64,000 bases of DNA from Leptothermofonsia sichuanensis E412 (GTDB taxonomy: Bacteria; Cyanobacteriota; Cyanobacteriia; Leptolyngbyales; Leptolyngbyaceae), in NCBI RefSeq assembly GCF_019891175.1, contig NZ_CP072600.1, positions 1,922,001 to 1,986,000 of the forward strand. The letters run 5' to 3'. Positions within the stretch are counted from its first letter, which is position 1; every line of letters begins with the position of its first letter. A program made the position numbers and the translations under genes. The notes beneath the pieces are model-generated. The model was not told the DNA's origin, ran no database searches, and saw nothing but the letters and a program-made list of their open reading frames with translations. This document shows, piece after piece, positions 15,019 to 46,354 of the stretch.

Positions 15019-15157
15019 AGGGGTGTAGTAGACTGAACAATTAGCTCTTCATCAGTCTGTTTCAGCATTACGGATGGGTCTTTTCAATGGCATCCCTGAT
15101 TCTTCGGAAACAGGAGCAGGGGTTTACAATCCCCAAGGTTTGGCTGATCGGGAATCT

Positions 15158-15747: not shown

Positions 15748-16455
15748 ATGCGTGTGAATGTTCTACGCAGGATCATGTTGCATCTGGGTATCACGGTTTG
15801 TATGGTTTCAACTTCTGGAATCATGCCGGTATCGGCGCAAATCGGGAACTTGAGCCGCAGCGAGTTCCCAGGCAGACGGATTGGTGGCGGGACCCGGAGC
15901 GAATGCCTGGCAGGGAACCAACCGATCGCAGCGCTGAACCCGGCGAATAATCTGGGAGTGACTGCCAGCAATCGCCCTTCCGTCTATTTTGTTGTCCCCA
16001 GGCTGGACGAGTCCTATCCGGTTGAGTTTCTCTTGCGCGATGCCGAGGGAAATGCTGTCTACGAAACCACGCTGAAAGCTGGCAAACAGGCCATTACTGG
16101 GGTTCATTTACCCCCAAATACTGTAAAGGTGGGTCAGGACTATCAGTGGTACTTTTCCGTAGTCTGTGACAGAGAAGATCGGTCCCAAAATATTGTATTG
16201 TCAGGCTGGATGCGACGGGTTGCATCAGACCTGTCTGATGGGCTATCCCCAGAGGTTCAACTGAGTCTGAAGGCTAAACTAAATCTGGCGCAGTCCTACC
16301 AGAATGCCGGACTCTGGAGTGATGCAATCTCAACCCTGGTTGAACTAAATCAGGCCTATCCCGATAGTGAAGCAGTCCGGCTTGCATGGCAAAAGCTCAT
16401 ACAAAAGCTGGATCTGGAATGGGTTTTTCAGCAATCCTTAGCTGGTCACCTGTAG
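15748..16455 (+). CDS. DUF928 domain-containing secreted protein
   Basis: The 235-residue product has a signal peptide (about residues 1-28, ending in VSAQ) and the DUF928 pattern: a GRRIGGGTRSEC start with a conserved Cys, LAALxP-like block (IAALNPANNLG), YFVVPRL, VEFLLRDAEGN, GVHLPP, DYQWYFSVVCD with a second Cys, and a helical C-terminus. DUF928 is common in cyanobacteria and often encoded beside CHASE2-domain proteins, exactly as here: the CHASE2-GGDEF-EAL gene starts 29 bp downstream. That suggests an operon and a joint periplasmic sensing role, but no biochemical function is known to me. Confidence 0.88.
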   Translation: MRVNVLRRIMLHLGITVCMVSTSGIMPVSAQIGNLSRSEFPGRRIGGGTRSECLAGNQPIAALNPANNLGVTASNRPSVYFVVPRLDESYPVEFLLRDAEGNAVYETTLKAGKQAITGVHLPPNTVKVGQDYQWYFSVVCDREDRSQNIVLSGWMRRVASDLSDGLSPEVQLSLKAKLNLAQSYQNAGLWSDAISTLVELNQAYPDSEAVRLAWQKLIQKLDLEWVFQQSLAGHL

Positions 16456-16483
16456 CACAGAAGTTGTCTCGGAGACGAGGTTC

Positions 16484-19021
16484 TTGCTGTTAGTCATCCC
16501 TTTGGTCCCCCGGTTGCGATCGCTCCTCCAGCGCATTCAACGGATGGGCGATCGCACCCTGCCCCCGTCCGGGATTGTTTGGGTAGCTGGTCGTTCAATC
16601 GTTCTCTCCAGTGCGATCGTGACCGGGGTGTTGCTAGGCATCCGGTCCCTGGGTGGACTGGAAGCTCTAGAATTATTCGTCCTGGATCGGCTTGTGCAAC
16701 TCCAACCAGATGCGGCCCCTGATGAGCGGTTGCTGGTGGTCACCATCACTGAACAAGACCTGCATCGCCATCGCTGGCCCCTATCTGATCAGATTCTGGC
16801 GCAGGCGTTGAAGCAACTTCAGTCCCACCGTCCCAGAGTCATTGGTTTAGATCTATATCGTGACCTGCCCCATCCGCCGGGAGAGGCTGCCCTGACTGCC
16901 CAACTGCAAGCCAAAAATCTGATTGCCATTACTGAAGTTGTGAGCGGCATTGCTCCCCCTCCTGGTGTAGAGGCGGAGCGAATTGGGTTCAATGATCTGC
17001 CCCTGGACCCGGATGGGGTACTCCGGCGCAATCTGCTTCTGGTTACCACAGAAGATCAAGACTACTACTCCTTTGCATTGCGGGTTAGCCTGACCTATCT
17101 CCACCAGGAGGGTATTTTCTTTCACTATCATCCTGAAGCATTATTTTTAGGATCGAGATCGATTGCTCGTTTAGAACCAACCTCCGGTGGCTATCAGACA
17201 GCCGATACCCGCGGGTATCAAACCTTACTGGACTACCGCTCTCGCAGGGGTGTGGCACGCACCGTTACCCTGACCCAGGTGTTGGACAATCAAATGGACC
17301 CTGGCTGGGTAGGCGACAAAATTGTTCTGATTGGCACGGTTGCTCCCAGCCTGAAAGATCAGGTTTACACCCCCTACAGCGCCAGCCAGCAGGATACCTT
17401 TCAGATGCCCGGGGTGATTATCCATGCCCAGATGATCAGTCAACTTCTGGACATTGCAGCAGGCAAAAACCGATTGTTTCGGTTCTGGCAGCCGTGGGCT
17501 GAACGCTTCTGGCTCTGGACCTGGGCACTCACGGGGGCATTTCTGGCCTGGAAGTTGAGACATCCCGTAGCCTTTGGGGTCGCCGGTCTTGGTTGCCTGC
17601 TGGCAATCGGCGGGACAGGTTGGGTGCTGTTTTCCCACCTGATCTGGATTCCAGTGGCAGAACCTGGGCTGGCATTGATTGGAGCTATGGGTCTGGCAAT
17701 GGCCCATCGACTGCTTTACACCACAACGCGCGATCCCCTCACGGGTTTGCTGAATCGGGCAGCCTTTGGGCGTTCTTTGGGGCGATCGCTGACCCGGCTA
17801 TCCCGGCAACCTTCCTCTACCCTGGGTGTCATGGTTTTGAGCCTGGATCGCTTTCAACTGATCCATAAAAGCCTGGGAGATGCGATCGGGGATCATCTGT
17901 TGTTGCAGGTTATTCGTCGCTGGCGGGCACACCTGCCGCGTTCTGCCCAACTTGCCAGGGTTGGGCAGGAGGAATTTGCCGTTTTCCTTCAACGCAGTGG
18001 GAAGGAAAGCTTGATTGATCTGGCAAAGCAGCTACAGGAGGCGATGACAGAACCATTTTGGATTCGCCAGCAGCCCGTCCTGACAACTGCCAGCATTGGC
18101 ATGGCAGTGACCCAGCCAGAGCATGTCTATACGCCTGAAAACCTGCTGCGGGATGCCCATACGGCCATGTACCGTGCCAGGACAATGGGAACGGATCGTT
18201 ACGCGGTCTTCGCCACTGGAATGTGGTCAGAGACCGTCGCTCAATTCACCCTTGAGAATGACCTGCGCCGGGGCATCGCTGCCCAGGAATTTGTCCTTTA
18301 CTATCAACCGATAGTTTGGCTGAACACGGAAAAAATTGCTGGCTTTGAGGCACTGGTGCGCTGGCAGCACCCTAAAAAAGGATTTATTCCACCCTTCAAC
18401 TTTATTCCACTGGCAGAAGAAACGGGATTGATTATTCCCCTGGGAAACTGGATCTGCCAGACTGCCTGTTGTCAGCTTCATCAGTGGCAACAGCAATTTC
18501 CAGACTATTCCTTGATGATGAGTGTGAACCTGTCAGGTCGTCAGTTTGAACAACCTGACCTGATCGATCAACTGGCTGCCATCTTCCAGGCAACCCAGAT
18601 TCAGGAATCCAGCCTCAAACTCGAAATTACTGAAAGCATGGTAATGGGTGATGTTGGAGCTGCAATTGATTTAATGCTGAGGCTCAAATCGCTTGGCTGC
18701 AAGTTGGGTATGGATGACTTTGGAACAGGCTATTCTTCCCTCAGTCAACTTCGCCGTTTTCCCATCGATACCCTCAAAGTGGATAAATCTTTTGTCCAGA
18801 AGATGGGCGAAAGCCACGAAGACTGGGAGATTGTTCGTATGATTATTTCTCTGGGGCACACGCTGGGTATGGATGTGATTGCGGAAGGGGTGGAGACGCA
18901 GGTGGAGGCGGAGGCATTGCGATCGCTGGGGTGCGAATTTGGTCAGGGATATTTTTGGGCGAAACCATTACCTGCGGTTGAAGCTACGGTGCTTTTAGAA
19001 AAGCAAAGGGAGAGTTGCTGA
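16484..19021 (+). CDS. CHASE2 - degenerate GGDEF - EAL cyclic-di-GMP protein
   Basis: The 845-residue membrane protein has an N-terminal helix (about residues 35-60), an extracytoplasmic CHASE2 sensor (about 60-310), two to three more helices (about 345-410), a GGDEF domain (about 415-580) and an EAL domain (about 590-835). The GGDEF signature reads GQEEF (about residue 494), so diguanylate cyclase activity is doubtful. The EAL domain looks intact: FEALVRW, NLSGRQF, LEITES, DDFGTGYSS, KVDKSF, EGVET and QGYFWAKP are present, so it is probably a c-di-GMP phosphodiesterase. TTG 16484 gives the longest frame; ATG 16544 is an alternative. Likely co-transcribed with the DUF928 gene. Confidence 0.92.
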   Translation: MLLVIPLVPRLRSLLQRIQRMGDRTLPPSGIVWVAGRSIVLSSAIVTGVLLGIRSLGGLEALELFVLDRLVQLQPDAAPDERLLVVTITEQDLHRHRWPLSDQILAQALKQLQSHRPRVIGLDLYRDLPHPPGEAALTAQLQAKNLIAITEVVSGIAPPPGVEAERIGFNDLPLDPDGVLRRNLLLVTTEDQDYYSFALRVSLTYLHQEGIFFHYHPEALFLGSRSIARLEPTSGGYQTADTRGYQTLLDYRSRRGVARTVTLTQVLDNQMDPGWVGDKIVLIGTVAPSLKDQVYTPYSASQQDTFQMPGVIIHAQMISQLLDIAAGKNRLFRFWQPWAERFWLWTWALTGAFLAWKLRHPVAFGVAGLGCLLAIGGTGWVLFSHLIWIPVAEPGLALIGAMGLAMAHRLLYTTTRDPLTGLLNRAAFGRSLGRSLTRLSRQPSSTLGVMVLSLDRFQLIHKSLGDAIGDHLLLQVIRRWRAHLPRSAQLARVGQEEFAVFLQRSGKESLIDLAKQLQEAMTEPFWIRQQPVLTTASIGMAVTQPEHVYTPENLLRDAHTAMYRARTMGTDRYAVFATGMWSETVAQFTLENDLRRGIAAQEFVLYYQPIVWLNTEKIAGFEALVRWQHPKKGFIPPFNFIPLAEETGLIIPLGNWICQTACCQLHQWQQQFPDYSLMMSVNLSGRQFEQPDLIDQLAAIFQATQIQESSLKLEITESMVMGDVGAAIDLMLRLKSLGCKLGMDDFGTGYSSLSQLRRFPIDTLKVDKSFVQKMGESHEDWEIVRMIISLGHTLGMDVIAEGVETQVEAEALRSLGCEFGQGYFWAKPLPAVEATVLLEKQRESC

Positions 19022-19053: not shown

Positions 19054-19215
19054 AACGCTCAATTCATATCCAACGCCAGTCATATCTAACGCCAGCAAGA
19101 ACTGATTCCTGGTGAATGCAGGAGTAGAACCCTGCCCTCATCTAAAGAAGTATTGCCCTATCATAGGCATATCTAGAAATGGAGCGATCGCCTTCAATGG
19201 ATGCGAGGTAACGCT

Positions 19216-19800
19216 ATGTCTGTTGCCATAAAGTTTATGACCCTTGAGGAGTATCTTAACTATGACGATGGCACGGATACCCGCTACGAATTGGTGAATG
19301 GGGAATTGAGCGCGATGCCGACAGATAGCGATCTCAACGATCGCATTGCCACCTTTCTATTTGCTTACTTCCTGCAATTCGGTATTCCTTATTATCGCTT
19401 GAGCATGAAAGCCCAAATTGCGGTGAGTGGTACACGGGCAACGGCACGACAACCTGATTTAATGGTGCTGTCAGAAGAGGCTGCAACAGCCCTGAGTGGG
19501 GCAAACCAGCGTTTAATTACTCACGACATGCCACCACCATTGTTGGTGGTTGAAGTTGTTAGCCCCGATCAGGAAAGTCGGGATTATCGTTATAAACGCA
19601 CTGAATACGCCGGACGACACATTCCCGAATATTGGATTGTAGACCCGATCGCCCAGAAAGTTACCGTGCTGGAATGGGTGGATGGTCTGTACGAGGAGCA
19701 AGTATACCAGGGAGATCAGGCGATCGCGTCGCCCCAGTTTGCAACTTTTAATCTAACGGCGACAACCGTACTCAGGGGAGGATGCGGTGGTGCTGAATAG
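19216..19800 (+). CDS. Uma2-family (DUF820) PD-(D/E)xK nuclease-like protein
   Basis: About 194 residues. The Uma2 fold is a restriction-endonuclease-like domain expanded massively in cyanobacteria; its cellular role is unknown. Seen are [17 protein letters not shown] (the acidic residue of the first motif), [12 protein letters not shown] (catalytic Asp), [23 protein letters not shown] (the ExK-like part), and [10 protein letters not shown]. The frame opens at 19201, but ATG 19216 follows a GAGGT motif at good distance. It is a close paralogue of the gene at 25068: the C-terminal half is nearly identical (about 40 residues around [12 protein letters not shown]), so one arose by duplication or gene conversion. 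Some family members are found inside mobile or defence regions. Confidence 0.88.
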   Translation: MSVAIKFMTLEEYLNYDDGTDTRYELVNGELSAMPTDSDLNDRIATFLFAYFLQFGIPYYRLSMKAQIAVSGTRATARQPDLMVLSEEAATALSGANQRLITHDMPPPLLVVEVVSPDQESRDYRYKRTEYAGRHIPEYWIVDPIAQKVTVLEWVDGLYEEQVYQGDQAIASPQFATFNLTATTVLRGGCGGAE

Positions 19801-19802
19801 TC

Positions 19803-19833
19803 GTCTGAATTGAAACTTCGTTCCAATTCAGAC
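19803..19833 (+). terminator. hairpin after Uma2 gene
   Basis: GTCTGAATTG (19803-19812) pairs with CAATTCAGAC (19824-19833), starting three bases after the stop. Downstream ACAACGTTCAATTCAC matches ACAACGCTCAATTCAT after the hairpin at 19026, so the two regions are related copies. Confidence 0.55.
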
Positions 19834-19957
19834 AACGTTCAATTCACACCCGAAATCAGCAACGCCGGATGCTAAGGAGTAAGGGTTTTATCCTCTGCCA
19901 CTTCACCCCAGAGACCCACTGGCGCAGCCTGCCCAGAGGGCATAGGGCACAAAAACC

Positions 19958-22900
19958 TCACAAGCTATTACCAATCAAAATAAACGGTGCCCAGTAATAG
20001 GGATGGGAAAAATCAGGCGATCGCCCTTGAGTTGTCTTAGTTCCTGGTTCGGCTGCGATCAGGATATCAGAACGCTGGGGGGCATCTTTAGCTGTAAGCT
20101 TGCCTTGCAGTAGTTCCAGTTGCGCTTGCTGGAGGGCGGCGGCCTTAGTCATAGTGCCCTTTGCTAAATGTTTGTAAAACTGCTGCATCAGAAGACTGGT
20201 ACTGGCATCATTCACCAGCCAGAGAGACGCAAGGACAGATTTGGCTCCTCGATGTAGAAAGTAACCACTGATGCCAGAGATTTCAGTACCATCCTGGGCA
20301 GACCCACTCAACCCGGTTTCGCAGGCACTCAGAACGACGAGATGGGTGGAGTGGAGTTGGTTGAGGCTGGCAATTTCTGTAATGGGGAGGCGGTTGCCGT
20401 TGCCCAACAGTAAAAAAGACTCCGTAATGCTTCTGGGGTTAAAACTACCATGCGTGGCAATGTGCAGCACACGGAAGAATGCAATATTTTCGCGCAGAGT
20501 ATCAGCCGTAAACGCTTCATCCAGACGAATCTTACCGGGATAGATCCCTTGATTATTGCCGTCTTGAACGATCGCGTTAAGTTCAGCCGGGACGTTGGGG
20601 AGTGGGGCAAAGGTTGAAAAGGCTTTAGATGTCCCCAGCGCCAGGACAGTTGGCAATTCCCCGTTGGGAGAGAAGCGATCGCTCATGTCGTTCTCGGTCG
20701 TGATCATGTTGGACAGTGCATAGCGTTGTGCCAGATATTGGTTCCCATCATGCAAAGCGGCAACTGGGATGTAGCGGGTAACATGATCGAGCGAGAAAAT
20801 CAGAGCTTGCTTAGGATTGTTCGTTAGTTCGGTTTGCAGAGGGGGTGGAACTAACCAGTTGTAGAGTTGAGTGCTAGTGGTTTTGAGCGCATCTAAGTTG
20901 CTGAAGGGTGACCCAATTTGTTGGCGTAATTTTTGCACCGTTGCAGTCAATTGGGCTTGCGTGACATTGGGAACAACGATCGCAGTGCTGTTGCCCTGAG
21001 CATCAGTCCACACGACCCAGAACTTATCACCAACTACCAGATTTTGGATCAGGAGTGCCTCCGGTTTTGCCTTGAGAATGGCTTGGGGATTCCCAAATTC
21101 ACTGAGAATTTTGTTGCTTTCCTGAGTGATGCGATCTCGGTTGCGCGTCAGGGATTGGCTGAGGGCGAGCAGGGTCTCCAGAGTCAAGGATTTCTCGGTA
21201 ACTTGCTCTTCAAATGCCTGGAGTGTTTTGGCTTCGAGGGGATGGAAAGGAAGTTGAACTGGTGATGAATCCGTGTCTTCACTACCATAACTACGAACTT
21301 CTTGAACTTTTAAGAGTTCTAAAATTGATTGAGCTTCCCGAATACGACCCTGAGTCAACAGTAAGTCAGCTAGATTGCGATAGGTTCCAGCTATGGAACT
21401 TGTATAAATCTCTTGTAAGTCTCTTGGCAGTTTCTTAATTTCTTGGCGAATAGATTCACTGACATTGACAGATTGCTTGTAAAAAACGATGGATAACTCA
21501 GGTTGGTTTTGTTTTTGTAACGTTGCGCCGATATAGCTCAACGCAATGCGTTCTCCATCACGATTTTTGATTTGACGTGCCATTTCCAACCCTGACTTGT
21601 GCAGGTCAATCGCTTTGGCATAGTCCCCAATTGCCAGGTAGGCATTGCCCAGTGATCCTAAGGTTTTTGCCTGCCCACGCCGATCATTCACCGCTTGAGC
21701 AATTTCTAGACTGGCCTGGTAATATCGGATGGCTTCTGGATACTTGCCCTGAGCGACGTAAGCATTGCCAAGGTATCCAAGCGACTTTCCCTCTCCCCGG
21801 CGATCGCTAATTTCCTGGGCAGTCTCTAAACTCGCCTGGTGATATTTGATTGCCTCTTGATAGTCGCCCTGGTCATGATAGGCATTGCCCAGATAACCCA
21901 GTGACTTGGCTTTGCCCAAGCGATCATTAAGCTGAATCGCAATTTCCAGGCTTTGCTTGTAGTACTCGATCGCTTTGGGATAGTTTCCCAATGACCGATA
22001 CACCAGTCCCAAAAATCCCAGAGATTGTCCCTGACCTCGTGTTTCTTTAATCGCACGAGTAATCGCTAAACGCTGCTCATGAAATTCAATCGCTTTGGCA
22101 TAGTTTCCTTGTGCTCGATAGGCATTCCCCAGGTTTCCCATCGCATTCCCTTCACCCTGGCGATCGCCAATCTCCTGGGCAATTGCTAACCGTTGCTCAT
22201 GGTGTTTGATGGCTTGTGTATAGTTGCCCTGAGCGTAATAGTTCATCCCCAGGTTACCCAATGCTGACCCTTCGCCGCGGCGATCGCCAATCTTGCGGGT
22301 TATCTCCAGACTCAATTGGTGGTACTCCATCGCTCTTGCCGAGTCTCCCCGCGTGCGATAGGCAACCCCCAGATTAATCAAAGATTCGCCTTCTCCCCGC
22401 TGATCGCCAATCTCCTGCGCGATTGCTAAACTCTTGCGATGAGATTCGATTGCCCGATCATATCGCCCCAGTGCTTCGTAGGCTTTACCCAAATTTCGCA
22501 GGGCGATCGCTTCTCCCCGGCGATCTCGAACCTCCCAGGCAATCTGCAAACTCTGAGTGTAGAGGGCGATTGCCTGGTCTGTGTTGCCCAATGAAAGATA
22601 GGCAACCCCCATATCACTGAGTACCCGTCCTTCCTCTAGTCGATCCTGGGTTTCCCGTTTGATGGCTAAACTCTGTTCATGGAGAGAAATTGCTTTGGTG
22701 TAATCGCCAAACACCAGGTAAGCCGTCCCTAAACTGCCCAGTGCCCGGCCTTCAAGCCGACGGTTTTTGAGGTCGCGGGCGATCGCCAGGCTTTGTTCGT
22801 AATAGCGGATGGCGTTCTCATACTGAGCCAAAGACTCGTACACGGTACCCAGCCCAAGCAATGCCTCAGCCACCCCATGCTGATTGGTCAGTTGTTGATA

Positions 22901-23356
22901 TATTGATCGCGCCTGCTCATAGTAGCGCATGGCTTGCTCATACCGGGCAAGTACCTCATAGCTATGCCCCAGGCTCATCAGTGCCTCTGCTTCACTATCG
23001 CGGGCATTTGCCTGCTGAAAAATCCTGAGGGCTTGTTGGTAGTACGCGATCGCGGGTTCATACTCAGATAAGTCTTGATACACACGCCCAAGAGCAATAA
23101 GTGTATTTGCTTCACCCTGATCGTCTTTCAGTACTTGATAACTTTGCAGTGCCTTTTGCAAAGTTTGTTTCGCCGCCTCAAACTGTCCAGATCGAGTTTG
23201 CTGAGTGCCATTTTGCAACAGTTTATCAGCATCTGACTTACGCGAGGTTATTGGTTGCGGCGTTGCATGAGCTATGCAGGATGATTCTACTTTAGGGATC
23301 AATTCAAACAGCCCTGCAAGTAGTCCAGCTAAAATAATCAATCTTCCATACCGCAT
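19958..23356 (-). CDS. TPR-repeat CHAT-domain (caspase-like) protein
   Basis: The 1132-residue product has a signal/anchor segment (about residues 5-30), some fifteen tetratricopeptide repeats at 40-residue spacing (about 45-640, mostly of the NLGxAYxxxGxYxxAIxxHxQ type), a linker, and a C-terminal CHAT domain (about 800-1130). CHAT is a clan CD peptidase-like fold. The expected dyad is visible: His in HIATHGSF (about residue 964) and Cys in LSACETG (about 1010). HetF of heterocyst formers and the Craspase subunit TPR-CHAT are known relatives. The TPR stack probably binds a partner that controls the protease. It belongs to an island with an orthocaspase and Uma2 nucleases. The native substrate is unknown. 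Confidence 0.93.
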   Translation of the reverse strand: MRYGRLIILAGLLAGLFELIPKVESSCIAHATPQPITSRKSDADKLLQNGTQQTRSGQFEAAKQTLQKALQSYQVLKDDQGEANTLIALGRVYQDLSEYEPAIAYYQQALRIFQQANARDSEAEALMSLGHSYEVLARYEQAMRYYEQARSIYQQLTNQHGVAEALLGLGTVYESLAQYENAIRYYEQSLAIARDLKNRRLEGRALGSLGTAYLVFGDYTKAISLHEQSLAIKRETQDRLEEGRVLSDMGVAYLSLGNTDQAIALYTQSLQIAWEVRDRRGEAIALRNLGKAYEALGRYDRAIESHRKSLAIAQEIGDQRGEGESLINLGVAYRTRGDSARAMEYHQLSLEITRKIGDRRGEGSALGNLGMNYYAQGNYTQAIKHHEQRLAIAQEIGDRQGEGNAMGNLGNAYRAQGNYAKAIEFHEQRLAITRAIKETRGQGQSLGFLGLVYRSLGNYPKAIEYYKQSLEIAIQLNDRLGKAKSLGYLGNAYHDQGDYQEAIKYHQASLETAQEISDRRGEGKSLGYLGNAYVAQGKYPEAIRYYQASLEIAQAVNDRRGQAKTLGSLGNAYLAIGDYAKAIDLHKSGLEMARQIKNRDGERIALSYIGATLQKQNQPELSIVFYKQSVNVSESIRQEIKKLPRDLQEIYTSSIAGTYRNLADLLLTQGRIREAQSILELLKVQEVRSYGSEDTDSSPVQLPFHPLEAKTLQAFEEQVTEKSLTLETLLALSQSLTRNRDRITQESNKILSEFGNPQAILKAKPEALLIQNLVVGDKFWVVWTDAQGNSTAIVVPNVTQAQLTATVQKLRQQIGSPFSNLDALKTTSTQLYNWLVPPPLQTELTNNPKQALIFSLDHVTRYIPVAALHDGNQYLAQRYALSNMITTENDMSDRFSPNGELPTVLALGTSKAFSTFAPLPNVPAELNAIVQDGNNQGIYPGKIRLDEAFTADTLRENIAFFRVLHIATHGSFNPRSITESFLLLGNGNRLPITEIASLNQLHSTHLVVLSACETGLSGSAQDGTEISGISGYFLHRGAKSVLASLWLVNDASTSLLMQQFYKHLAKGTMTKAAALQQAQLELLQGKLTAKDAPQRSDILIAAEPGTKTTQGRSPDFSHPYYWAPFILIGNSL

Positions 23357-23670
23357 CTACTTTCCTCAAACTCACAATACCTAACAGGCTGTCCCTCCAG
23401 TGGGATTGAGCATATGCACTTTTATTATTTCTACTCACCATGAAAATTATCACCCTGATCTAGCAGCGACGGCTCTGGTTCATTGAATCTTTTTCTTTGG
23501 CATTGCTGAATCACCACTTGAGAACTGGTTCTCAATCAGAGAAACGCAGGTTTATCGAATCTTTATGTAATGTCAGCCAGAGTCATCGTGACAATTTTAG
23601 AAGAATCGACCCCGCGATCGCAGCGCCGAACAGCCGATCCAGGGATCGCAGGCAACCCCACAGGTTGATG
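23357..23670. other. intergenic stretch, no gene seen
   Basis: About 314 bp between the TPR-CHAT gene and the truncated TPR gene, both read leftward. It should contain the promoter of the CHAT gene. The part next to 23671 could be decayed sequence of the truncated TPR gene, but no residual CHAT motif was found. Confidence 0.4.
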
Positions 23671-24300
23671 TTAATTATCCGATAACTCACCAAACTGCTG
23701 CCGATAGCGGTCTAGCAAAGCCTCCGCCGCCATTGCCCGACGATAGTGTGTGCGCCACGTTTGGGTATAGGATTTTTGCAGGGAGCGGGCCATTCGGCAG
23801 GATATTTGCCGAATGGTTTCCCGTACATTCACCGACTGCTTGTAGAAGACAATCGCCAGTTCCGGTTGCTGCTGCTGTTGCAAGACAAAGCCAATGTTGC
23901 TGAGCGCAATCCCTTCCCCCTGGCGGTCGTTGATTTCCCGCGCGATGGCTAAGCTTTGTTCGTAAAACTCGATCGCTTTGCCATAGTTGCCCAGCGATAA
24001 GTAAGCAAGGCCCAGGTTGCCCAGGGCGGCTTCTTCCCCCTGGCGGTCCTTGATGGCTCGATAAATGTCTAGCGCCTGCTGCCAGGATTGCAACGCGGCG
24101 GTAAACTGGCTGGTTTGATACTGCTGAATGCCCTGTTGCAGTAGGCGATCCGCTGCTGTTTTGCGGGCATCTACCGTCTCGGCGGCGGGGGACAGCAAAG
24201 GGGGAAGAGGGAGAAGGGAGAAGGGAAAAGGGAAAAGGGAAGTGAGGACAAGCAGCGGGGTTGCTGCAGAGAGGCTCAGGATCAGTAGGCGCGGACGCAT
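23671..24300 (-). CDS. short TPR protein, probably a truncated TPR-CHAT relative
   Basis: The 209 residues hold a signal-like N-terminus, three to four TPRs (about residues 45-165) and then the segment VFYKQSVNVRETIRQ, which matches VFYKQSVNVSESIRQ just before the CHAT linker in the neighbouring 1132-residue protein. After that point the sequence diverges (SCRMARSLQKSYTQ) and stops, with no CHAT domain. The comparison segment VAHTYR is partly visible in the other frame at about 23745-23760, so small compensating indels are likely. The hydrophobic N-terminus (LFPFPFSLLPLPPLL) comes from a purine/pyrimidine low-complexity tract at about 24195-24245. It is probably a degenerating paralogue; it might still bind partners through its TPRs. 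Confidence 0.65.
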   Translation of the reverse strand: MRPRLLILSLSAATPLLVLTSLFPFPFSLLPLPPLLSPAAETVDARKTAADRLLQQGIQQYQTSQFTAALQSWQQALDIYRAIKDRQGEEAALGNLGLAYLSLGNYGKAIEFYEQSLAIAREINDRQGEGIALSNIGFVLQQQQQPELAIVFYKQSVNVRETIRQISCRMARSLQKSYTQTWRTHYRRAMAAEALLDRYRQQFGELSDN

Positions 24301-24472
24301 TATGTAGGAATCCTCCAGGGGCAGAGAAACTCAACAACAATTTATCACGCTGGCCCGTTTGAGGTTATGCAGTGTTGAGGGGTATAGCCAGTAGCCACCA
24401 CACCAGCCACTGGCTAATAGCCACCAGCTACCAGCCAGATACAATAAAACCAGGATTCCTGCTGGAGGCGAT

Positions 24473-25039
24473 ATGGCCCAACCCACAACCGAGTCACTAC
24501 GCTGGACGATCGCCGATCTGGATCTGCTTCCAGACAACGGTACTCGTTACGAAATTATTGATGGTGAACTGTTCATGACTCGTGCCCCTCGCTGGAAGCA
24601 TCAAAAAGTGGCAAACAACATTTGTGCCGCACTTAACAATTGTTCTGAACTGGCAACCTTGGGAGAAGCGACCACAACTCCAGGAATTGTCTTTTCTGAA
24701 ACGGATAACGTAATTCCTGATGTCGTTTGGGCAAGTTATACCCGGTTAGAGACTTTACTGGATGAAGCAGAACATTTGACTGGGGCACCAGAGTTAATTG
24801 TGGAGGTGCTGTCCCCTGGAGCAGACAATGAGCGGCGCGACAGAGAAGTGAAGCTGAAACTCTATACATTACAGGGCGTTCAGGAATACTGGATTGTCAA
24901 CCCACGGTTACAGCAAGTCCAGATTTTTCGACGGCAACGGGCTATCTTAGAACTGGTCGCAACTCTGCTCATAGCCGATGAAATCACCTCTCCCCTGCTT
25001 CCTGGATTCAGTTGTCCCGTTGCTGCATTTTTCCATTAG
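24473..25039 (+). CDS. Uma2-family (DUF820) nuclease-like protein
   Basis: The 188-residue Uma2 protein is of a different branch from its two neighbours. It begins MAQPTTESLRWTIADLDLLPDNG and carries TRYEIIDGELFM, an IPDVVW block with the catalytic Asp, ELIVEVLSPGADNERRDREVKLKLY with the Glu and Lys of the nuclease core, and VQEYWIVNP. All core acidic and basic residues appear to be present. The ATG at 24473 is preceded by GGAGGCGAT, giving a credible ribosome site. It is followed 28 bp later by another Uma2 gene, so the two could be co-transcribed. Confidence 0.88.
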   Translation: MAQPTTESLRWTIADLDLLPDNGTRYEIIDGELFMTRAPRWKHQKVANNICAALNNCSELATLGEATTTPGIVFSETDNVIPDVVWASYTRLETLLDEAEHLTGAPELIVEVLSPGADNERRDREVKLKLYTLQGVQEYWIVNPRLQQVQIFRRQRAILELVATLLIADEITSPLLPGFSCPVAAFFH

Positions 25040-25067
25040 TCGTTCATTCCAGCCATGAGTAGGAGCT

Positions 25068-25640
25068 ATGTCGGTCACTACCAAACCCATGACTCTTGAG
25101 GAATACCTGAATCATGACGACGGCACCGATACCCGCTACGAACTGGTGAACGGGGAACTGATTGCCATGCCGCCAGAGAGCCGACTAAACGTTAAAATTG
25201 CTATCTTTCTGCTGACTCAATTTGTCAAACTGGGTATTCCTGAAGACCAGATTGCTATGAAGACTCAGATTGCTGTGAGTGGATTACGGGCTACGGCACG
25301 GGAACCGGACTTGATGGTGCTATCTGAAGAAGCGGCGATCGCCCTGGAGGGAGCACCACAATCCCTGATCACCCATGACATGCCACCCCCGCTGCTGGTG
25401 GTTGAAGTCGTGAGTCCAAATCAGGAAAGTCGGGATTACCGCTATAAACGCACTGAATACGCCGGACGGCACATCCCAGAGTATTGGATTGTAGACCCGA
25501 TCGCCCAGAAAGTTACCATCCTGGAATGGGTGGATGGCATGTATGAAGAGCAAGTTTTCCAGGGCAATGATGCAATTGCTTCGCCCCAATTTCCAGCACT
25601 GGAACTGACGGCTGTTCAGGTATTAAGTGCAGGACGTTGA
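25068..25640 (+). CDS. Uma2-family (DUF820) nuclease-like protein, paralogue of 19216-19800
   Basis: The 190-residue product has the same motif set as the gene at 19216: [62 protein letters not shown]. The N-terminal thirds differ more than the rest. AGGAG at 25061-25065 lies directly before ATG 25068 at a short distance. The three Uma2 genes flank and separate the TPR-CHAT and caspase genes, all on the strand opposite to those. Confidence 0.88.
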
Positions 25641-25752
25641 TTTTTTGTCCATAGAACCGACACAAACTTCGGAGGGTTTAATCAGGCAGCCAGCATCCAA
25701 CCAGGGTCGTGGCTCACACCTGCAAAGTAGCAAGAGAGAATGCCGCAGCTTG

Positions 25753-27105
25753 TCATAGCCCCATTGAGATTGGTACATTCCGAAACCGAAACGGCAGTAG
25801 TCGTTGACCATACTCCCGCACAATCACCTCAACTAAGGCAAACGGTTCAGCCTGGTCAGGCACGTTCTCAAAGGTCATGAATGCGGCAACACCAACCCCC
25901 CTGGAAAGCTGCTGGCAGATAGGATTAGAACTACGGCCCTGATCTTGACCAAACCGGACATGATTCGCTTTGTACTGCATGCCTTGGGAATCAACGATAT
26001 TGCTCCCAGTAGATCTGCTGTATTGACCGTGAATACACACTCGTCTGTTCTGAGCCTGGTCGGTGACTAAGAACTCGCATCTTAATGCACCATCGTTTCC
26101 TCTACAGGTTTTTAGTTGTAAGAGGATATCATCCCTGGATTGGGCTAATGCAGTTCGTTGCGGTTCAGGAGACGATGGGGATGGAATTGGCACAGAAGAG
26201 TTGGATGCGGGTGCAGGCAATGGAGGAGTTGGAGTCCCTACAATGTCAACATCGGATCGATTGGGATTCAGTGGCTTGAAGGCAAAATTTCCAGTTAAAG
26301 AGGAGGATTCCCACGGAGTTTGCTGATTGTTGGTTTTTGCCATCACGGATTGGCGTACTGCTTTGAACATCAACTCGATTGGGGTATCGGGTGTTCTAAT
26401 GTGCTGAAGTAAGCTGGCTGTATAGGGGGAGTTGCGACTGTTTCCTCCGTAGCCATCCTTTGCCACTTTGCCAGGAGCGGTTGCAAATGAAATCAGTGTT
26501 CCCTGAGCGGCCTGAACAAAGGCTAACCCGGTCGCTGGCGATCGCCAGTTGCGGCTATAAGGATTATTGCGGCAGGCATCAATCAGCACCAGGTTAATCG
26601 AATTGTTCGCATCTTCCATTGCACCCAGAATTTTCCCTAACGGAACTGCTTCATAGGCAACATCCTGCTCTCGATTGATCGTTGCGCCGATCGGAATCAG
26701 GTAGTTTTCCCCATTAACCTGAATCCCATGTCCTGCAAAATAGAATAGCCCAACTCCACCCTGACGCAGTTTGCGATTAAATTGCTCGATCGCTCCATTC
26801 ATCCCCCGCTGGGTCACATCGGTTAACAGAATTACTTCAAAGCCCAATTCGCCCAGCGCCTTTGCAACATCGGTAGCATCATGAATCGGATTCGCTAACC
26901 TGCCACTCCCAGCATAATTTGCATTACCAATGACAAGTGCTGTTCTACGCTCCCTTTGGGCGACCAGAGGAGATGCCAGTTTTACCCTGGATGCCGGAGG
27001 TTTGATATCTGACTGCCTTTCCAATGCCAACAGGTTTGAATTCAATTCAAAGACCGACAATGCTGAAAATAGCAATGATGTAGTTGTAAGCTGAATCCAA
27101 TTCAT
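25753..27105 (-). CDS. orthocaspase (peptidase C14-like) with C-terminal accessory domain
   Basis: The 450-residue product has an N-terminal hydrophobic export segment (about residues 5-28), a p20-like caspase domain (about 54-290) and an extra C-terminal domain (about 325-450). The catalytic pair is intact: His126 in YFAGHG and Cys178 in IDACRNNP. The start block RTALVIGNANYAGSGRLANP is typical for prokaryotic metacaspase homologues, which cut after Arg/Lys. The last domain has two conserved-looking cysteine pairs and ends with an FEN-like beta-rich stretch; similar tails occur on other cyanobacterial caspases but I cannot name it. It sits in the CHAT/Uma2 island and is predicted to be periplasmic or membrane-anchored. 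Confidence 0.92.
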   Translation of the reverse strand: MNWIQLTTTSLLFSALSVFELNSNLLALERQSDIKPPASRVKLASPLVAQRERRTALVIGNANYAGSGRLANPIHDATDVAKALGELGFEVILLTDVTQRGMNGAIEQFNRKLRQGGVGLFYFAGHGIQVNGENYLIPIGATINREQDVAYEAVPLGKILGAMEDANNSINLVLIDACRNNPYSRNWRSPATGLAFVQAAQGTLISFATAPGKVAKDGYGGNSRNSPYTASLLQHIRTPDTPIELMFKAVRQSVMAKTNNQQTPWESSSLTGNFAFKPLNPNRSDVDIVGTPTPPLPAPASNSSVPIPSPSSPEPQRTALAQSRDDILLQLKTCRGNDGALRCEFLVTDQAQNRRVCIHGQYSRSTGSNIVDSQGMQYKANHVRFGQDQGRSSNPICQQLSRGVGVAAFMTFENVPDQAEPFALVEVIVREYGQRLLPFRFRNVPISMGL

Positions 27106-27162
27106 TGTTCAATCTGGTTTGCGATTAAAGTCTGCAATTAACATTCCATCCGTATAACTGCA

Positions 27163-27257
27163 TGTAGCGTTTCTCAATTGAGTAAGGTATGGACGTGTGA
27201 AGTACAGTGGGGCACTCCACCCCCTCAGTGTACCTCATATCCTTGAAAAGGGCTATA
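27163..27257. repeat. TATAGC-type palindromic repeat (long copy)
   Basis: Begins TGTAGCGTTTCTCAATTGAG and ends CCTTGAAAAGGGCTATA, the same outer blocks as 7629-7682, with about 40 nt inserted in the centre that themselves form an inverted pair (GTACAGTGGGG...CCCCCTCAGTGTAC). Confidence 0.75.
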
Positions 27258-27285
27258 TAAGAATGACACTGATATCAGGGGTTAA

Positions 27286-27318
27286 AGATCTCCAACTTCT
27301 CAAAGAAGTTGGAGATCT
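27286..27318. repeat. perfect 15-bp hairpin
   Basis: AGATCTCCAACTTCT (27286-27300) is followed after CAA by its exact complement AGAAGTTGGAGATCT (27304-27318). Such AACTTCT/AGAAGTT hairpins are frequent between cyanobacterial genes. It lies between two genes read leftward and could be a terminator or processing site. Confidence 0.75.
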
Positions 27319-27444
27319 GAGTGAGCGCATTTGGCTTAATTCAATGACATTCAGGCATAAATGCAGGTATAGATGCCGAACAGGATTTCAGTGGGTGTAA
27401 TTACAATCGCCGAACAAAGCCAGGGTTACCACTGGTAAATTACC

Positions 27445-29538
27445 TTATTGGGGTGATGCGGGGATAGGTGATTGGGTATTCTGTGGAGTGATGACATTAC
27501 TGGAGATGCAGGTGCGAAACAAGAAAATACTTGAAATGAGAAATACAATGGTCAATAAAGGAGTAAGGTTATAGTCAACTTCTGAGGCAGAACCTTTCTT
27601 TGGGTGGGATTTCCTGGTGCGGTAGTGATGCGTTCTCTGATCAGGTTGACCAGGTGATTCAGAATAAATGGATGGAGCCGTTTTCATATCAGTTATCTTA
27701 AACGGCGAGTTTGAGAAAATCGAACTCAGCTCTTCAAAAAGCTGAAGATCGCCCTGTTCTCTAGCCAGCTCCCTGGCCTGCTCAAAATGCTTTATCCCTT
27801 CCAGAAAGTTGTTCTGCCTTATAAAAGCTTTTCCCAAGCCTAAGTGCGCCCGTGCATTCTGAGGGTCGATGCGAAGGGCCGCTCTAAACTCTGCAATAGC
27901 TTCGTCCAGATTTCCTTGCTCGAACAGGATCAACCCCAGGCTAAGGCGAGCATCGATCAATTGTGGGTCGATCTGAACGGCTTGCCTGAAACAAGAAATA
28001 GCGGACTCTGGCTTACCCTGGATTTCCATCGCACGTCCCAGGAGATAGTGCATCCGGGCATCGTCAGGGTTGGTGTGAATCGCTTTTTGAAGTTCTGAGA
28101 CCGACTCGGCACTGGACAAAATATCCGTTAGATTCTGTCTGGAATCTGCAAGGTCTGGATTGAGGGAGTTAGCTTTATCGAATGCCTTAATTGCCTGAAT
28201 CAGGTGGCCCTGACATCTAAGAGCTACCCCCAATCCGTTGTAAGCGTGGGCAAAGTCAGGGCAAAGGTGAATGGCCTGGCGATAGGCGGCAATTGCCGCC
28301 TCAAACTGCTGCTGATCGCCAAGAGCATTTCCTAAACCGAGATAAGCCTGAAACAGGTCGGGGTCAATTTGAATGGCTTGCTGATGGGCTGCAATGGCAT
28401 CCTGTAACTGCCCCTGCACTCTCAGTGCATTTCCCAGATTGACATAAACCATAGCAAAATCAGGCTTAATCCGAATTGCCTGCCGATAGGCAGCGATCGC
28501 CGCTTCCAGCTTTCCCTGTTTTTTAAGAGCCAGCCCCAGGTAATAGTAATTTGCCGGGCTATCCGGATCGAGTTGAATGTTCCTGGTTGAAATGGCCTCA
28601 ACCTGTGGCCAGTCTTCTTGCTCAATCGCTCGCTGAACGGAATCTACGGAAGTTTCCGCTTCAAGATACTGCAAATACTGATCGAGTTCAGCACTCGCCT
28701 CGGTGTTATTCTGGGACTGGGCTAGTTCTTTCGCTTTCTGAAAGTGGGCAATTGCTTCTTCAGTCTGCCCTTGTTGTTCTAGAGCAAACCCTAAGTTGAA
28801 CTCAGCCTTGAAACTGTTGGGATTGAGCCGAAGAGCCTGCTGGCATGCGGCAATTGCCTCTGGCCAATTCTGCTGCTCTATCCATAAGATTGCCAGCAGG
28901 TCATAGGCATTTCCAAACTTGGGTTGAAGTTGAATAGCTTGTTTAACCTCGGCGATCGCCTCATCCAGCTTACCTTGCTTGTATAAAGCATTTCCCAGAT
29001 TGCAGTGCTCAATCGGATGGGGTCGAATCCGAATCGCTTGCTGAAACAGTGAAATCGCTTCTTCCAGGTTTCCCTGATTCATCAGAAGATTTCCTAGATT
29101 GCCATAAGCATAGGTATTTTCAGAATCGGCGCGGATGGCCTGTCGGTAGGCATTCATCGCCCCGTCTAAATCTCCCTGTTGATCAAGAATAAGCCCCAAA
29201 TTATGGTAAGAAATGGAAGAATCAGGCTGCAGGCGGATAGCTTGTCTGGTGGCGGCGAGCGCTTCCTTCAGATGCCCTAGCCGCCACAGGAGGCCTCCTA
29301 AATTGCTGTAGGCTGCTGCAAAATCAGGATTGATACAAACTGCTTGCTGATACTCAGCGATCGCCTCCTCCGGACGACCTAACTCAGTTAGCACGACTCC
29401 TAGATGATAGCGGGTTTCTGCATTGATAGGATTGCGCTGAATGGCTCTCTGAAGAACTACTTCCGCTTCTTCAAACTCTCCCCATTTCGTCAGCCAAAAC
29501 CCTCGAACCTCATCCTCTAATCTAGCATCTGGGTCCAT
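27445..29538 (-). CDS. TPR-repeat protein with C-terminal membrane anchor
   Basis: The 697-residue product is almost entirely tetratricopeptide repeats at 34-residue spacing (about residues 15-270 and 300-600), with the classic pattern AxxxYxxAIxxxPxxAxAYxNLGxxL. Short helical linkers near 275-300 and 585-610 carry AREQGDLQLFEEL-type segments. A basic stretch and one hydrophobic helix (LLTIVFLISSIFLF, about 660-680) are at the C-terminus, with a short Pro/Ser tail, so the protein is probably tail-anchored with the TPRs in the cytoplasm. There is no signal peptide and no enzymatic domain. A scaffold role is likely; the partner is unknown. The orthocaspase gene is the next gene in the same direction. 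Confidence 0.88.
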   Translation of the reverse strand: MDPDARLEDEVRGFWLTKWGEFEEAEVVLQRAIQRNPINAETRYHLGVVLTELGRPEEAIAEYQQAVCINPDFAAAYSNLGGLLWRLGHLKEALAATRQAIRLQPDSSISYHNLGLILDQQGDLDGAMNAYRQAIRADSENTYAYGNLGNLLMNQGNLEEAISLFQQAIRIRPHPIEHCNLGNALYKQGKLDEAIAEVKQAIQLQPKFGNAYDLLAILWIEQQNWPEAIAACQQALRLNPNSFKAEFNLGFALEQQGQTEEAIAHFQKAKELAQSQNNTEASAELDQYLQYLEAETSVDSVQRAIEQEDWPQVEAISTRNIQLDPDSPANYYYLGLALKKQGKLEAAIAAYRQAIRIKPDFAMVYVNLGNALRVQGQLQDAIAAHQQAIQIDPDLFQAYLGLGNALGDQQQFEAAIAAYRQAIHLCPDFAHAYNGLGVALRCQGHLIQAIKAFDKANSLNPDLADSRQNLTDILSSAESVSELQKAIHTNPDDARMHYLLGRAMEIQGKPESAISCFRQAVQIDPQLIDARLSLGLILFEQGNLDEAIAEFRAALRIDPQNARAHLGLGKAFIRQNNFLEGIKHFEQARELAREQGDLQLFEELSSIFSNSPFKITDMKTAPSIYSESPGQPDQRTHHYRTRKSHPKKGSASEVDYNLTPLLTIVFLISSIFLFRTCISSNVITPQNTQSPIPASPQ

Positions 29539-29659
29539 CGCTTTACTCCGTAAGAAGGGAGCTTTTTTATCAGGAAACTCAATTCAATCAATAGCTTTTC
29601 AATGAATAGCCTTGCTCTAAAGAAGATGCCAAGAGAGTTCATCAAATTTAATCTCGATC

Positions 29660-29752
29660 TATAGCAGTCCTAAATCAGTTGTAAGAGTGAGAGGCTTTGT
29701 GAGAAAGGATTCCTGGGGAATCCTTTCTCACAATCCAGATAGGAACGCTATA
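29660..29752. repeat. fold-back MITE-like element
   Basis: Ends TATAGCAGTCCTA and TAGGAACGCTATA are inverted. The centre has a perfect 15-bp stem, GTGAGAAAGGATTCC at 29699-29713 with its complement at 29717-29731. Non-coding. Confidence 0.7.
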
Positions 29753-29835
29753 GTGCTGGTTGGCAGACATAACCGTACAGTGCCTTGATGCTCAACTTTA
29801 GAGTTCATCGGGATTTTGCCTTCATCCTTCTGCTT

Positions 29836-31781
29836 TCATCCTTCTGCCTTCATTCTTCTGCCTTCTTTCAACGGAACTGTCACCACAAATGTGGTTCCAG
29901 CGTTGACCTCACTGATAAAGTGAATGCTGCCGTTGTGGGCATCCAGGCAATGTTTTACGATTGTCAGCCCCAGTCCCGTACCGGGAATAGTACCTACGTT
30001 TTTTGCCCGGTGAAAGGCTTCAAACAAACGGTGCCCTTCTTCTGGTGGGATGCCAATCCCCTGGTCTTTGATCTGAAACCTGGCGGTTTCACGATCGCAG
30101 GCAAGCTCAAACTGGACGGTACTACCAGCGGGGGAATACTTCACGGCATTGGACAGCAGATTGGTCAAAATCTGCCGGAGCAATTTTTCATCGGCCCGGG
30201 CGATCGCCTCAGGGCAATGACTGAGAAAATCAATCCTGTGTCGTTTACCCACACTCACCTGAATTTGCAGTGCCAGGTCATGACAAAATCGGGTTAAATC
30301 CAGTGGACCTGGGTTAAATTCCAGCCGGTCTGACTCAGCCTTACCAATCAGCAACACATCTTCCAACAACTGGGTCATATGTTGCACCGTATTTTGAATC
30401 AGGTGAAGTTGATCCAGACGTTCGGCTTCAGTCCATTGATGCCCGTAATGTTCCAACAGTTCTGCGGACGACAGAATTGTGCTGAGGGGAGTGCGAAATT
30501 CATGGGAGGTCATGGCAACAAAGCGGGATTTGAGTTCGCTCAATTCCTTCTCCTGTTCCAGCGTTTTGAGCAGTTCCTCTTCCAGTTGTTTGCGGCGGCC
30601 GATATCCCGTTGAATGGCGACCCAGTGGGTAAACCACCCATTGTGATCGGCAACGGGTGTAATGCTCAGTTCAACCCAGAACTCTGACCCATCCTTGCGG
30701 TAATTGATCAGTTCCACAACGATGGGTTGCCAGTGTTCCAGGGCGTCTCGAATTTTATTCAAAGTGTCCCGGTTTGTTTTTGCCCCTTGCAGAATGCGGG
30801 GAGTTTTGCCCACCACTTCCTCAGTCGTGTAGCCAGTCAGGCGGCTGAATGCCTCATTCGCATAAACAATGCGAGGACCAGGCAGGTTAATTGGTTCTGC
30901 TTCAGTGATCAGAACTGCATCATTGGCGTTGACTACCACCGATTCCAGAAGCCGCAGGCGTTCTTGTTGTTGTTTCCGCCGGGTAATATCTTCAGCAATT
31001 CCAGCAATCAGGTGGATTTCTCCCAGGTCATTTTTAATGGGAAAGGCGCGATCTCGGATCCAGCGGATTTCGCCGTCTGCTCGCACAATACGATACTCCT
31101 GGTCAGAAGGCTCCAGAGAAGTTGCAGAAGCAGCCACAACCCGCTCGAGATCGTCCGGGTGAATCACGGTCATTCAGGAGTGCCCATCCTGATAGAGACT
31201 GTCGCAGGTGCAGCCCCAAATTTGTTCATAGGCAGGGCTGACATAGACAACCCGATTTTCCTGAGGGTTCCACATCCAGAAAACCTGCTTGATGTTTTCT
31301 GTCAGTTGCCGGAACCGCTCTTCGCTGTCCCGTAATGCCTGCCACAGATAGGACTGGGACAGGGCGATGCTGACCTGGTGGGCCAGTTGCTGGAGTAAGT
31401 CAACTTCAAATTCCGTCCAGTGCCGGGTTTGATGGCACTGGTGAGCAATGATTAAGCCCCAGAGTTTATTGCCCTGGACCAGCGGCACCACCAGTTTTGC
31501 TTTTACATTTAACTCGCGCAGAAGCTGGGTGTGGCAGGGTGTGAGATCGGACATTTCAATATCGTCAATGCGACGGATTCTGCCCTCAAGAAACATGGCG
31601 TGATATTCATGGGGGAAGGTTTCTGGCAGAAAGGCGGCTCCAACCAGACTGGCGGTGTCTGGAGTGGTCGATTCATTCATTACGATGCCAGTCCCGTCGG
31701 GCAACAGATGGTAGATCAAAACCCGATCGACCATGAGCAGTTGCCGCACTTCCGTAACGGTGGTTTGCAGAATTTGCTCTA
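29836..31781 (-). pseudogene. GAF-PAS-PAS sensor histidine kinase, broken by in-frame TGA and 5' IS insertion
   Basis: Reading leftward from the IS border, the frame gives LEQILQTTVTEVRQLL and a GAF domain (to about 31330), then a PAS domain cut by a TGA at 31174-31176. The same frame restarts at once with ATG 31173 and completes the PAS (MTVIHPDDLERV), a second PAS/PAC, a HisKA with SHEFRTP and a HATPase (NLLSNAVKYSP, DQGIGIP, GTGLGLTIVK). TGG to TGA would restore a usual WMxVIHPDD PAS motif. The original start and any further N-terminal domains are absent: right of the IS the frame meets a TAG at once. The last residues (GRRMKAEG) derive from a purine-rich tract. The gene is very likely inactive as a sensor, though the 445-residue C-terminal part could be translated. 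Confidence 0.8.
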
Positions 31782-46335: not shown

Positions 46336-46354
46336 ACATTTTCACAACAATTTC

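What the first reader, a model, noticed from the sequence alone, without database searches (positions are those of the whole stretch)
19216..29538. Protease-nuclease island: TPR-CHAT, orthocaspase, TPR proteins and three Uma2 genes
Two different caspase-clan proteases with visible His/Cys dyads, a truncated TPR-CHAT relative and a tail-anchored TPR protein lie within 10 kb with three PD-(D/E)xK-type proteins. CHAT and caspase domains act in bacterial immunity and cell death, and Uma2 proteins are nuclease-like with no known role. The strands separate cleanly: Uma2 on plus, proteases and TPRs on minus. This is the best candidate for an undescribed system here, but co-localisation in one genome proves nothing.
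Basis: inference. Interest (0 to 1): 0.6.

Follow-up and report, generated by a model that had tools for sequence, protein, structure and literature searches.

The report
Mixed island of proteases and Uma2
A stretch of a cyanobacterial chromosome carries two probably exported caspase-like proteases next to three nuclease-like Uma2 genes; it looks like separately acquired accessory genes rather than one immune system, although one Uma2 subfamily does keep turning up beside such protease genes in related species.

Summary
The genes are as described: three Uma2 (+), an intact TPR-CHAT, a truncated TPR remnant, a caspase-domain protein and a membrane-tailed TPR protein (-). The host, a 6.43 Mb cyanobacterium, has 26 CHAT, 66 Uma2 and at least 10 caspase loci. 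Within it CHAT and Uma2 co-locate no more than chance. The window's set is not conserved as such: its caspase has no match in the one congener held, and its TPR-CHAT has a 91%-identical copy, without Uma2 or caspase nearby, in another genus. Both proteases have export-type N-termini by hydropathy; Uma2 does not. One part survives testing: the subfamily of two of the three Uma2 lies within 5 kb of CHAT at 9 of 17 other loci in this family, against 1 of 39 control Uma2 loci there and 0 of 13 subfamily loci elsewhere; the nearest CHAT is antisense at all 9, and 4 of the 9 also hold a caspase gene of another type. CHAT's other recurrent neighbours, DUF928 and CHASE2, lie just upstream (15748-19021). 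Most likely: an accessory cluster of exported CHAT proteases with CHASE2/DUF928, with Uma2 inserted or hitchhiking. Interest modest.

The parts
15748..16455 (+).
   Evidence: Pfam PF06051 E 7e-45; DUF928 in 9 of 43 CHAT-bearing and 0 of 81 CHAT-less loci
16484..19021 (+). CHASE2-GGDEF-EAL sensor/cyclic-di-GMP protein
   Evidence: Pfam PF05226, PF00990, PF00563; DUF928-CHASE2-CHAT order in L083 and L084, both fetched because they matched this DNA
19201..19800 (+). Uma2 gene a, subfamily ac
   Evidence: PF05685 E 2.5e-35; tree
19958..23356 (-). TPR-CHAT protease, export-type N-terminus, His/Cys pair present
   Evidence: PF12770 E 9.8e-63; H969/C1012; 91% nt match to G023 over window 19953-23239
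23671..24300 (-). truncated TPR remnant of a TPR-CHAT gene; CHAT part missing
   Evidence: TPR_12; tblastn of four relatives' TPR-CHAT proteins matches TPR parts only
24473..25039 (+). Uma2 gene b, a different Uma2 subfamily
   Evidence: PF05685 E 6.8e-35; CHAT within 5 kb at 1 of 20 relatives' loci
25068..25640 (+). Uma2 gene c, subfamily ac, paralogue of gene a
   Evidence: PF05685 E 3.2e-36; 78% nt identical to gene a over 511 aligned bases
25753..27105 (-). caspase-domain (orthocaspase) protein, hydrophobic N-terminus, C-terminal region without a Pfam match
   Evidence: PF00656 E 3.5e-37; H126/C178; MALT1 match
27445..29538 (-). TPR protein with a hydrophobic segment near its C-terminus (tail-anchor-like)
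   Evidence: TPR families; C-terminal sequence printed

Best explanation
This is a composite accessory cluster, not one dedicated system. Shown: the genes belong to families present in many copies in this genome, at least the TPR-CHAT and the caspase have separate histories, and this set is not conserved as such. Inferred: the TPR-CHAT is exported, its TPR array binds a partner in the periplasm or at the surface, and the CHAT dyad cleaves or signals there, most likely in one pathway with DUF928 and the CHASE2 membrane sensor next door. The caspase is a second, independently acquired exported protease. The Uma2 genes encode small cytosolic nuclease-like proteins. Subfamily ac preferentially sits among TPR-CHAT genes in this family, most likely because these duplicated, recombination-prone clusters are where it inserts and spreads, rather than because the proteins act together.
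For: Copy numbers: 27 CHAT, 70 Uma2 and 10 caspase matches; CHAT with a Uma2 within 5 kb 1 of 26, 2.3 expected. The caspase has no match at E 0.001 in the congener G001; 14 other genomes of 388 in the class reach E 1e-25. TPR-CHAT: dS 0.37 to G023, against 1.22 for Uma2c to the same genome and 1.73 for glgX to the congener; the 91% match stays within the gene plus 5 bases past the stop, which fits transfer on its own. G023's copy (19.9 kb held) and G017's (contig end 176 bases away on one side) have no Uma2 or caspase in the stretch held. DUF928 in 9 of 43 CHAT loci and 0 of 81 CHAT-less loci; CHAT-CHASE2 fusions in three own-genome proteins and one of G017. Partners of Uma2ac belong to several CHAT clades and the link changes 10 times on the Uma2 tree, which fits repeated insertion or shuffling. 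Uma2ac copies with an internal stop exist in G032 and G014. CHAT genes cluster: 30 of 170 have another within 5 kb.
Against: The Uma2ac-CHAT association is strong within the family (9 of 17 loci against 1 of 39, p 2.7e-5) and antisense at all 9, which insertion alone does not predict. Four of the nine also hold a caspase gene (L086, L140, L145, L199); 3 of 17 within 5 kb against 0.2 expected, p 0.001. All gene pairs compared show purifying selection (dN/dS 0.07-0.12). This exact gene set in 10.3 kb has probability 0.0004 under uniform placement. Export rests on a hydropathy score, not a trained predictor. The role of DUF928/CHASE2 is by association; DUF928 was found at only 5 of 23 own-genome CHAT loci fetched.
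Confidence: 0.55

Rival explanations
1. Uma2ac and TPR-CHAT, in some loci with a caspase, form a functional module: for instance Uma2 cuts DNA or RNA and a protease, possibly before export, releases or destroys it, as in a toxin with a proteolytic switch.
For: Recurrent adjacency in 6 other genera of one family, antisense at 9 of 9; a caspase gene in 4 of these 9 loci; purifying selection; precedent of an orthocaspase that cleaves a neighbouring antitoxin (MaOC1, PMC7935541, abstract and passages); Uma2 matches PADLOC's candidate family PDC-S03.
Against: Different compartments by N-terminus; partners come from several CHAT clades; 25 of 26 CHAT loci of this genome lack a Uma2 within 5 kb; 0 of 13 subfamily loci outside the family are linked; gene order and distance vary.
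Confidence: 0.2
2. Pure coincidence of abundant gene families, with no association at all.
For: In this genome CHAT-Uma2 and CHAT-caspase proximity are at chance level.
Against: Across the family Uma2ac is near CHAT at 9 of 17 loci where 0.5-0.75 CHAT genes are expected in about 132 kb of flanks.
Confidence: 0.15
3. A defence or programmed-death island: CHAT and caspase as cell-death proteases, Uma2 as nuclease.
For: CHAT and caspase domains act in known defence systems (established knowledge); PDC-S03 match of all three Uma2; in relatives one caspase beside a Uma2 b homologue is fused to TIR and AAA domains (L177).
Against: Export-type N-termini; no defence genes among 10 flanking proteins scanned, bar a GlgB-like match of the isoamylase; no match to Csx29 at cut-off (42.9 against 300 bits); PADLOC's caspase model only weakly matched (2.8e-9).
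Confidence: 0.05

Closest known systems
HetF of Anabaena (CHAT and TPR protein)
   Same: Cyanobacterial protein with CHAT and TPR domains; a putative protease whose active site is needed (PMC8406250, passages seen)
   Different: HetF has its CHAT domain at the N-terminus, one transmembrane segment, and acts in cell division and heterocyst development; here TPRs come first, CHAT last, behind an export-type N-terminus
Csx29 / Craspase (type III-E CRISPR TPR-CHAT)
   Same: TPR followed by CHAT with a His/Cys dyad; weak profile match over the CHAT core
   Different: 42.9 bits against a cut-off of 300; no reading frame over 1132 residues in the window and no CRISPR family among 20 window proteins scanned; export-type N-terminus
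Cyanobacterial orthocaspases, including MaOC1
   Same: Caspase p20 domain with H and C; 0 to 10 copies per genome in one survey (PMC2853523, passage seen)
   Different: MaOC1 is followed by a toxin-antitoxin pair (PMC7935541, passages), which the window's caspase is not by its Pfam neighbours; this one has a C-terminal region without a Pfam match and a hydrophobic N-terminus
Uma2 (PF05685), PADLOC candidate PDC-S03
   Same: Full-length matches for all three; one sequence-related solved structure, 9y1l
   Different: No partner gene that defines the family is known to me; this subfamily is linked to CHAT in one family only
CHASE2/DUF928 gene neighbourhood of Nostoc
   Same: DUF928 beside CHASE2, described once with WD40 proteins (PMC5587647, passage seen)
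   Different: Here the third partner is CHAT, including CHAT-CHASE2 fusions

Membership tests
Type III-E TPR-CHAT (Csx29) | NCBIfam NF041237 above cut-off | tested here: not met
   42.9 bits, cut-off 300
Type III-E TPR-CHAT (Csx29) | gRAMP/Cas7-11 gene nearby | tested here: not met
   Longest open frame in the 64 kb window is 1132 residues, the TPR-CHAT itself; no CRISPR family among 20 window proteins scanned
Orthocaspase | Peptidase_C14 p20 domain | tested here: met
   PF00656 128.7 bits, cut-off 21.4
Orthocaspase | His/Cys dyad | tested here: met
   H126 and C178, aligned with MALT1
Orthocaspase | Proteolysis after basic residues | not testable with these tools
   Needs a biochemical assay
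Uma2 | PF05685 domain with conserved PD and V-E-V columns | tested here: met
   PF05685; PD and VEV present in all 9 aligned members
Anti-phage defence system | Placed among known defence genes | tested here: not met
   10 flanking proteins against PADLOC: only a GlgB-like match of the isoamylase; other flanking genes not scanned
Anti-phage defence system | Protection against phage | not testable with these tools
   Needs deletion strains and phages
Conserved Uma2-TPR-CHAT-caspase system | Same genes kept together across genera | tested here: not met
   CHAT, caspase and Uma2ac together at 4 other loci (L086, L140, L145, L199) but with a different caspase type and order; of 10 loci of this caspase's relatives none has Uma2ac, 2 have another Uma2 and 1 a TPR-CHAT
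Conserved Uma2-TPR-CHAT-caspase system | Uma2ac next to CHAT more than control Uma2 | tested here: met
   9 of 17 loci against 1 of 39 within the family; discovery set, no independent set was available

The most novel reading that the evidence does not exclude
In one cyanobacterial family a distinct Uma2 subfamily is functionally coupled to exported TPR-CHAT proteases, in part with Tat-type caspases, and kept antisense to them, forming a lineage-specific protease-nuclease conflict or regulatory module that I found no description of.
Probability: 0.15. Interest if true: 0.7.

Novelty: new member of a known kind. Interest (0 to 1): 0.37.

Why it matters
Uma2 has 70 matches in this one genome and, as far as I know, no agreed role. 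A subfamily with a repeatable genomic partner gives a concrete lead to test. The link of CHAT to CHASE2 and DUF928, including fusions, points to exported, signal-responsive proteases, a setting unlike the intracellular immunity in which CHAT proteases are best known.

Tried and rejected
Rejected: Craspase relative, defence island, near relative on a plasmid (no megablast match in the plasmid collection), known RNA element (no Rfam match at gathering score in 12000-36000), duplication of the whole block (within the block only the two Uma2ac genes and TPR repeats match each other).

Led nowhere: the one genome-collection scan with the caspase returned only its C-terminal domain, in Stenomitos rutilans. 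An out-of-sample test of the Uma2ac-CHAT link was planned in a note sent in the same turn as the family search; that search held 42 genomes and only carriers already examined, so the test was not run and the 9-of-17 figure is the discovery set. The subfamily cut-off (E 1e-80) was set after seeing the pattern. Two partial ac-like copies fall below it: G010:C250 (73% over 136 residues, no CHAT in its 7.5 kb, counted as a control; moving it gives p 8e-5) and G009:C68 (75% over 122 residues with one stop, not fetched). Literature: listings (18 of 18 papers listed; 7 of 7; 12 of 272; 10 of 136) showed no title or abstract start on a Uma2-protease link; only open-licence PubMed Central papers are searched. 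for PDC-S03: none of the 8 papers listed of 18 held that name.

Limits: my CHAT, caspase, Uma2, DUF928 and CHASE2 profiles were built from fetched loci in three rounds. The CHAT profile weakly cross-matches some caspases (L089, L091-L093), so 4 of the 43 'CHAT' loci are not real CHAT loci; the 9 linked loci were all confirmed with Pfam CHAT. One search missed a caspase gene (L104) found, so genome-search counts are lower bounds, and one search left that gene out. L083 and L084 were fetched because their DNA matched the window's DUF928-CHASE2 genes; without them DUF928 is in 7 of 41 CHAT loci. Some of the 124 loci overlap. CHAT-CHASE2 fusions count under both names. No structure was predicted.

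Full report
What is there. The CHAT and caspase His/Cys pairs are present (H969/C1012 and H126/C178). The short TPR gene looks like a remnant: four TPR-CHAT proteins of relatives match it only with their TPR parts, and no CHAT piece was found in 23301-24480. Uma2 a (19201) and c (25068) are paralogues (78% identical over 511 aligned bases); b (24473) belongs to another subfamily (at most 32% identity to rows of the ac tree). That Uma2 is of the PD-(D/E)xK type is recalled; Pfam calls it a putative restriction endonuclease.

Host. One contig of 6,426,061 bases. It is a cyanobacterium by kinship: genome G020 of the same family holds a contig of the same length as the named Stenomitos rutilans contig, with the same matches.

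More than chance in this genome? There are 27 CHAT, 70 Uma2 and 10 caspase matches, merged to 26, 66 and 9 loci; one further caspase turned up later (L104). Of 26 CHAT loci, 1 has a Uma2 within 5 kb, and that is this window; 2.3 are expected. Of 9 caspases, 2 have a Uma2 within 2.5 kb (0.4 expected, p 0.06) and 1 has a CHAT within 10 kb (0.7 expected). Uniform placement gives a caspase within 10.3 kb of a CHAT in 52% of trials, and that plus three Uma2 in 0.04%; the second figure counts against chance but describes a pattern chosen after it was seen.

Is the set conserved? The caspase has no match at E 0.001 in the only other genome held of the genus; 14 other genomes of 388 in the class reach E 1e-25, one of them (G020) through the C-terminal domain alone. 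Ten loci of its relatives were fetched (L087-L096). Their recurrent neighbours, judged by eye from N-termini, are a divergent gene of about 260 residues and a gene of about 175-217 residues directly upstream (L088, L089, L093, L094). A TPR-CHAT lies 3.3 kb away in one (L090) and a non-ac Uma2 3.2 and 5.8 kb away in two (L087, L094). The TPR-CHAT has a 91% identical copy in G023, another genus: the match runs from window 19953, 5 bases past the stop, to 23239, 117 bases inside the start, with no match in the flanks. Its synonymous divergence is 0.37, against 1.22 for Uma2c to the same genome and 1.73 for glgX to the congener, so it probably moved by itself. Neither G023's copy nor G017's (at a contig end) has a Uma2 or caspase in the stretch held. 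The six gene pairs compared show purifying selection (dN/dS 0.05-0.12).

The part of the idea that holds. I fetched the surroundings of relatives' Uma2 genes and searched them for CHAT and caspase. The subfamily of genes a and c (hits to c at E 1e-80 or better) has 18 other members at 17 loci in the family's 42 genomes. Nine loci have a CHAT gene within 5 kb (L080, L086, L137, L138, L140, L144, L145, L147, L199), confirmed with Pfam CHAT. A tenth (L143) has related TPR genes on both sides on a contig of 3.8 kb. Controls in the family: 1 of 24 loci of other Uma2 found by the same search and 0 of 15 loci of the subfamily of gene b; 9 of 17 against 1 of 39 gives p 2.7e-5. About 0.5-0.75 CHAT genes were expected in these flanks. 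Outside the family 0 of 13 members are linked. At all 9 loci the nearest CHAT is on the strand opposite to Uma2; L137 has a second CHAT on the same strand, and the linked control locus L163 is on the same strand. Linked Uma2 genes are scattered over the subfamily tree (10 changes, at least 5 forced; 61 of 500 shuffles as low) and their CHAT partners fall in several clades (11 changes, at least 8 forced). The nine loci come from six genera, so they are not fully independent. A coarser count over 33 looser Uma2 rows in six relatives gave 5 within 5 kb of a CHAT, 1.2 expected.

Caspase genes near Uma2. Within 5 kb they occur at 3 of 17 ac loci (L140, L145, L199; 0.2 expected, p 0.001), 0 of 24 other and 2 of 15 b loci (0.2 expected, p 0.016); L086 has one 7.6 kb away. 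So Uma2ac, CHAT and caspase meet at four other loci. The caspases there carry Tat-like N-termini by eye (motif recalled) and a DUF4384 domain in three, unlike the window's. In six relatives plus this genome, 4 of 58 caspases lie within 1.5 kb of a CHAT (0.6 expected, p 0.004) but only 6 of 58 within 10 kb (4.0 expected, p 0.2); two of those four were fetched (L086, L145), and L199 shows the same tandem.

What CHAT keeps company with. Across 124 fetched loci of 6 kb or more, DUF928 occurs in 9 of 43 with CHAT and 0 of 81 without; CHASE2 in 13 of 43 and 2 of 81 (four of the 43 are caspase cross-matches). CHAT and CHASE2 are fused in three proteins of this genome and one of G017. The TPR-CHAT, the caspase and DUF928 have hydrophobic N-termini, Uma2 does not, and 11 of 12 CHAT-type TPR proteins of linked loci do, the twelfth being a 62-residue fragment. 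This is a hydropathy score, not a signal-peptide prediction.

Mechanism. Shown: family membership, His/Cys pairs, separate histories of TPR-CHAT and caspase, the family-limited Uma2ac-CHAT link. Inferred: export of the proteases; TPR arrays as partner binding; action with CHASE2/DUF928 outside the cytoplasm; Uma2 as a cytosolic nuclease-like protein whose position among TPR-CHAT genes reflects insertion or hitchhiking in duplicated clusters (30 of 170 CHAT genes have another within 5 kb). A functional module remains possible.

Relation to known systems. It is not Csx29 (42.9 against 300 bits). HetF shares domains but differs in order and topology (PMC8406250, passages). MaOC1 cleaves a neighbouring antitoxin (PMC7935541, abstract and passages), a precedent for protease-neighbour function with a different neighbour. 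All three Uma2 match PADLOC's PDC-S03, which is a prediction. The flanks carry ferrochelatase, a dicarboxylate symporter, isoamylase, a cation ATPase and GAPDH and no defence genes among 10 proteins scanned beyond a GlgB-like match.

Verdict. Observation confirmed; a single fixed system is not supported; one association is real within the sampled family, unconfirmed outside it, and worth a test.

Noticed in passing
15748-19021: DUF928 and CHASE2-GGDEF-EAL genes directly upstream of the island; these families are recurrent neighbours of CHAT, and CHASE2 a fusion partner.
   Followed up: partly
31779-32912: IS with a DDE_3 transposase in two reading frames, with 7 further copies listed at 100% identity in the genome.
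   Followed up: partly
29836-31749: PAS histidine kinase split into two adjacent reading frames beside the IS; a 1164-residue homologue is intact in G006 (L085).
   Followed up: no
29655-29757: Dispersed hairpin repeat of about 100 nt with copies in 10 other own-genome loci fetched and 90-94% identical copies in G020, G006, G001 and G040; no Rfam match.
   Followed up: partly
15150-15258 and 46347-46454: A second dispersed repeat of about 105 nt, 81% identical between the two copies.
   Followed up: no
25753-27105, residues about 310-450: C-terminal region of the caspase matches no Pfam family and recurs, without the caspase part, in a 259-residue frame present twice in G020 / Stenomitos rutilans.
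   Followed up: no
L086, L145, L199: TPR-CHAT gene followed within about 150 bases on the same strand by a caspase gene with a Tat-like N-terminus.
   Followed up: partly
L177 7178-9493: Caspase-TIR-AAA_35 protein 1.2 kb from a Uma2 b homologue in G010.
   Followed up: no
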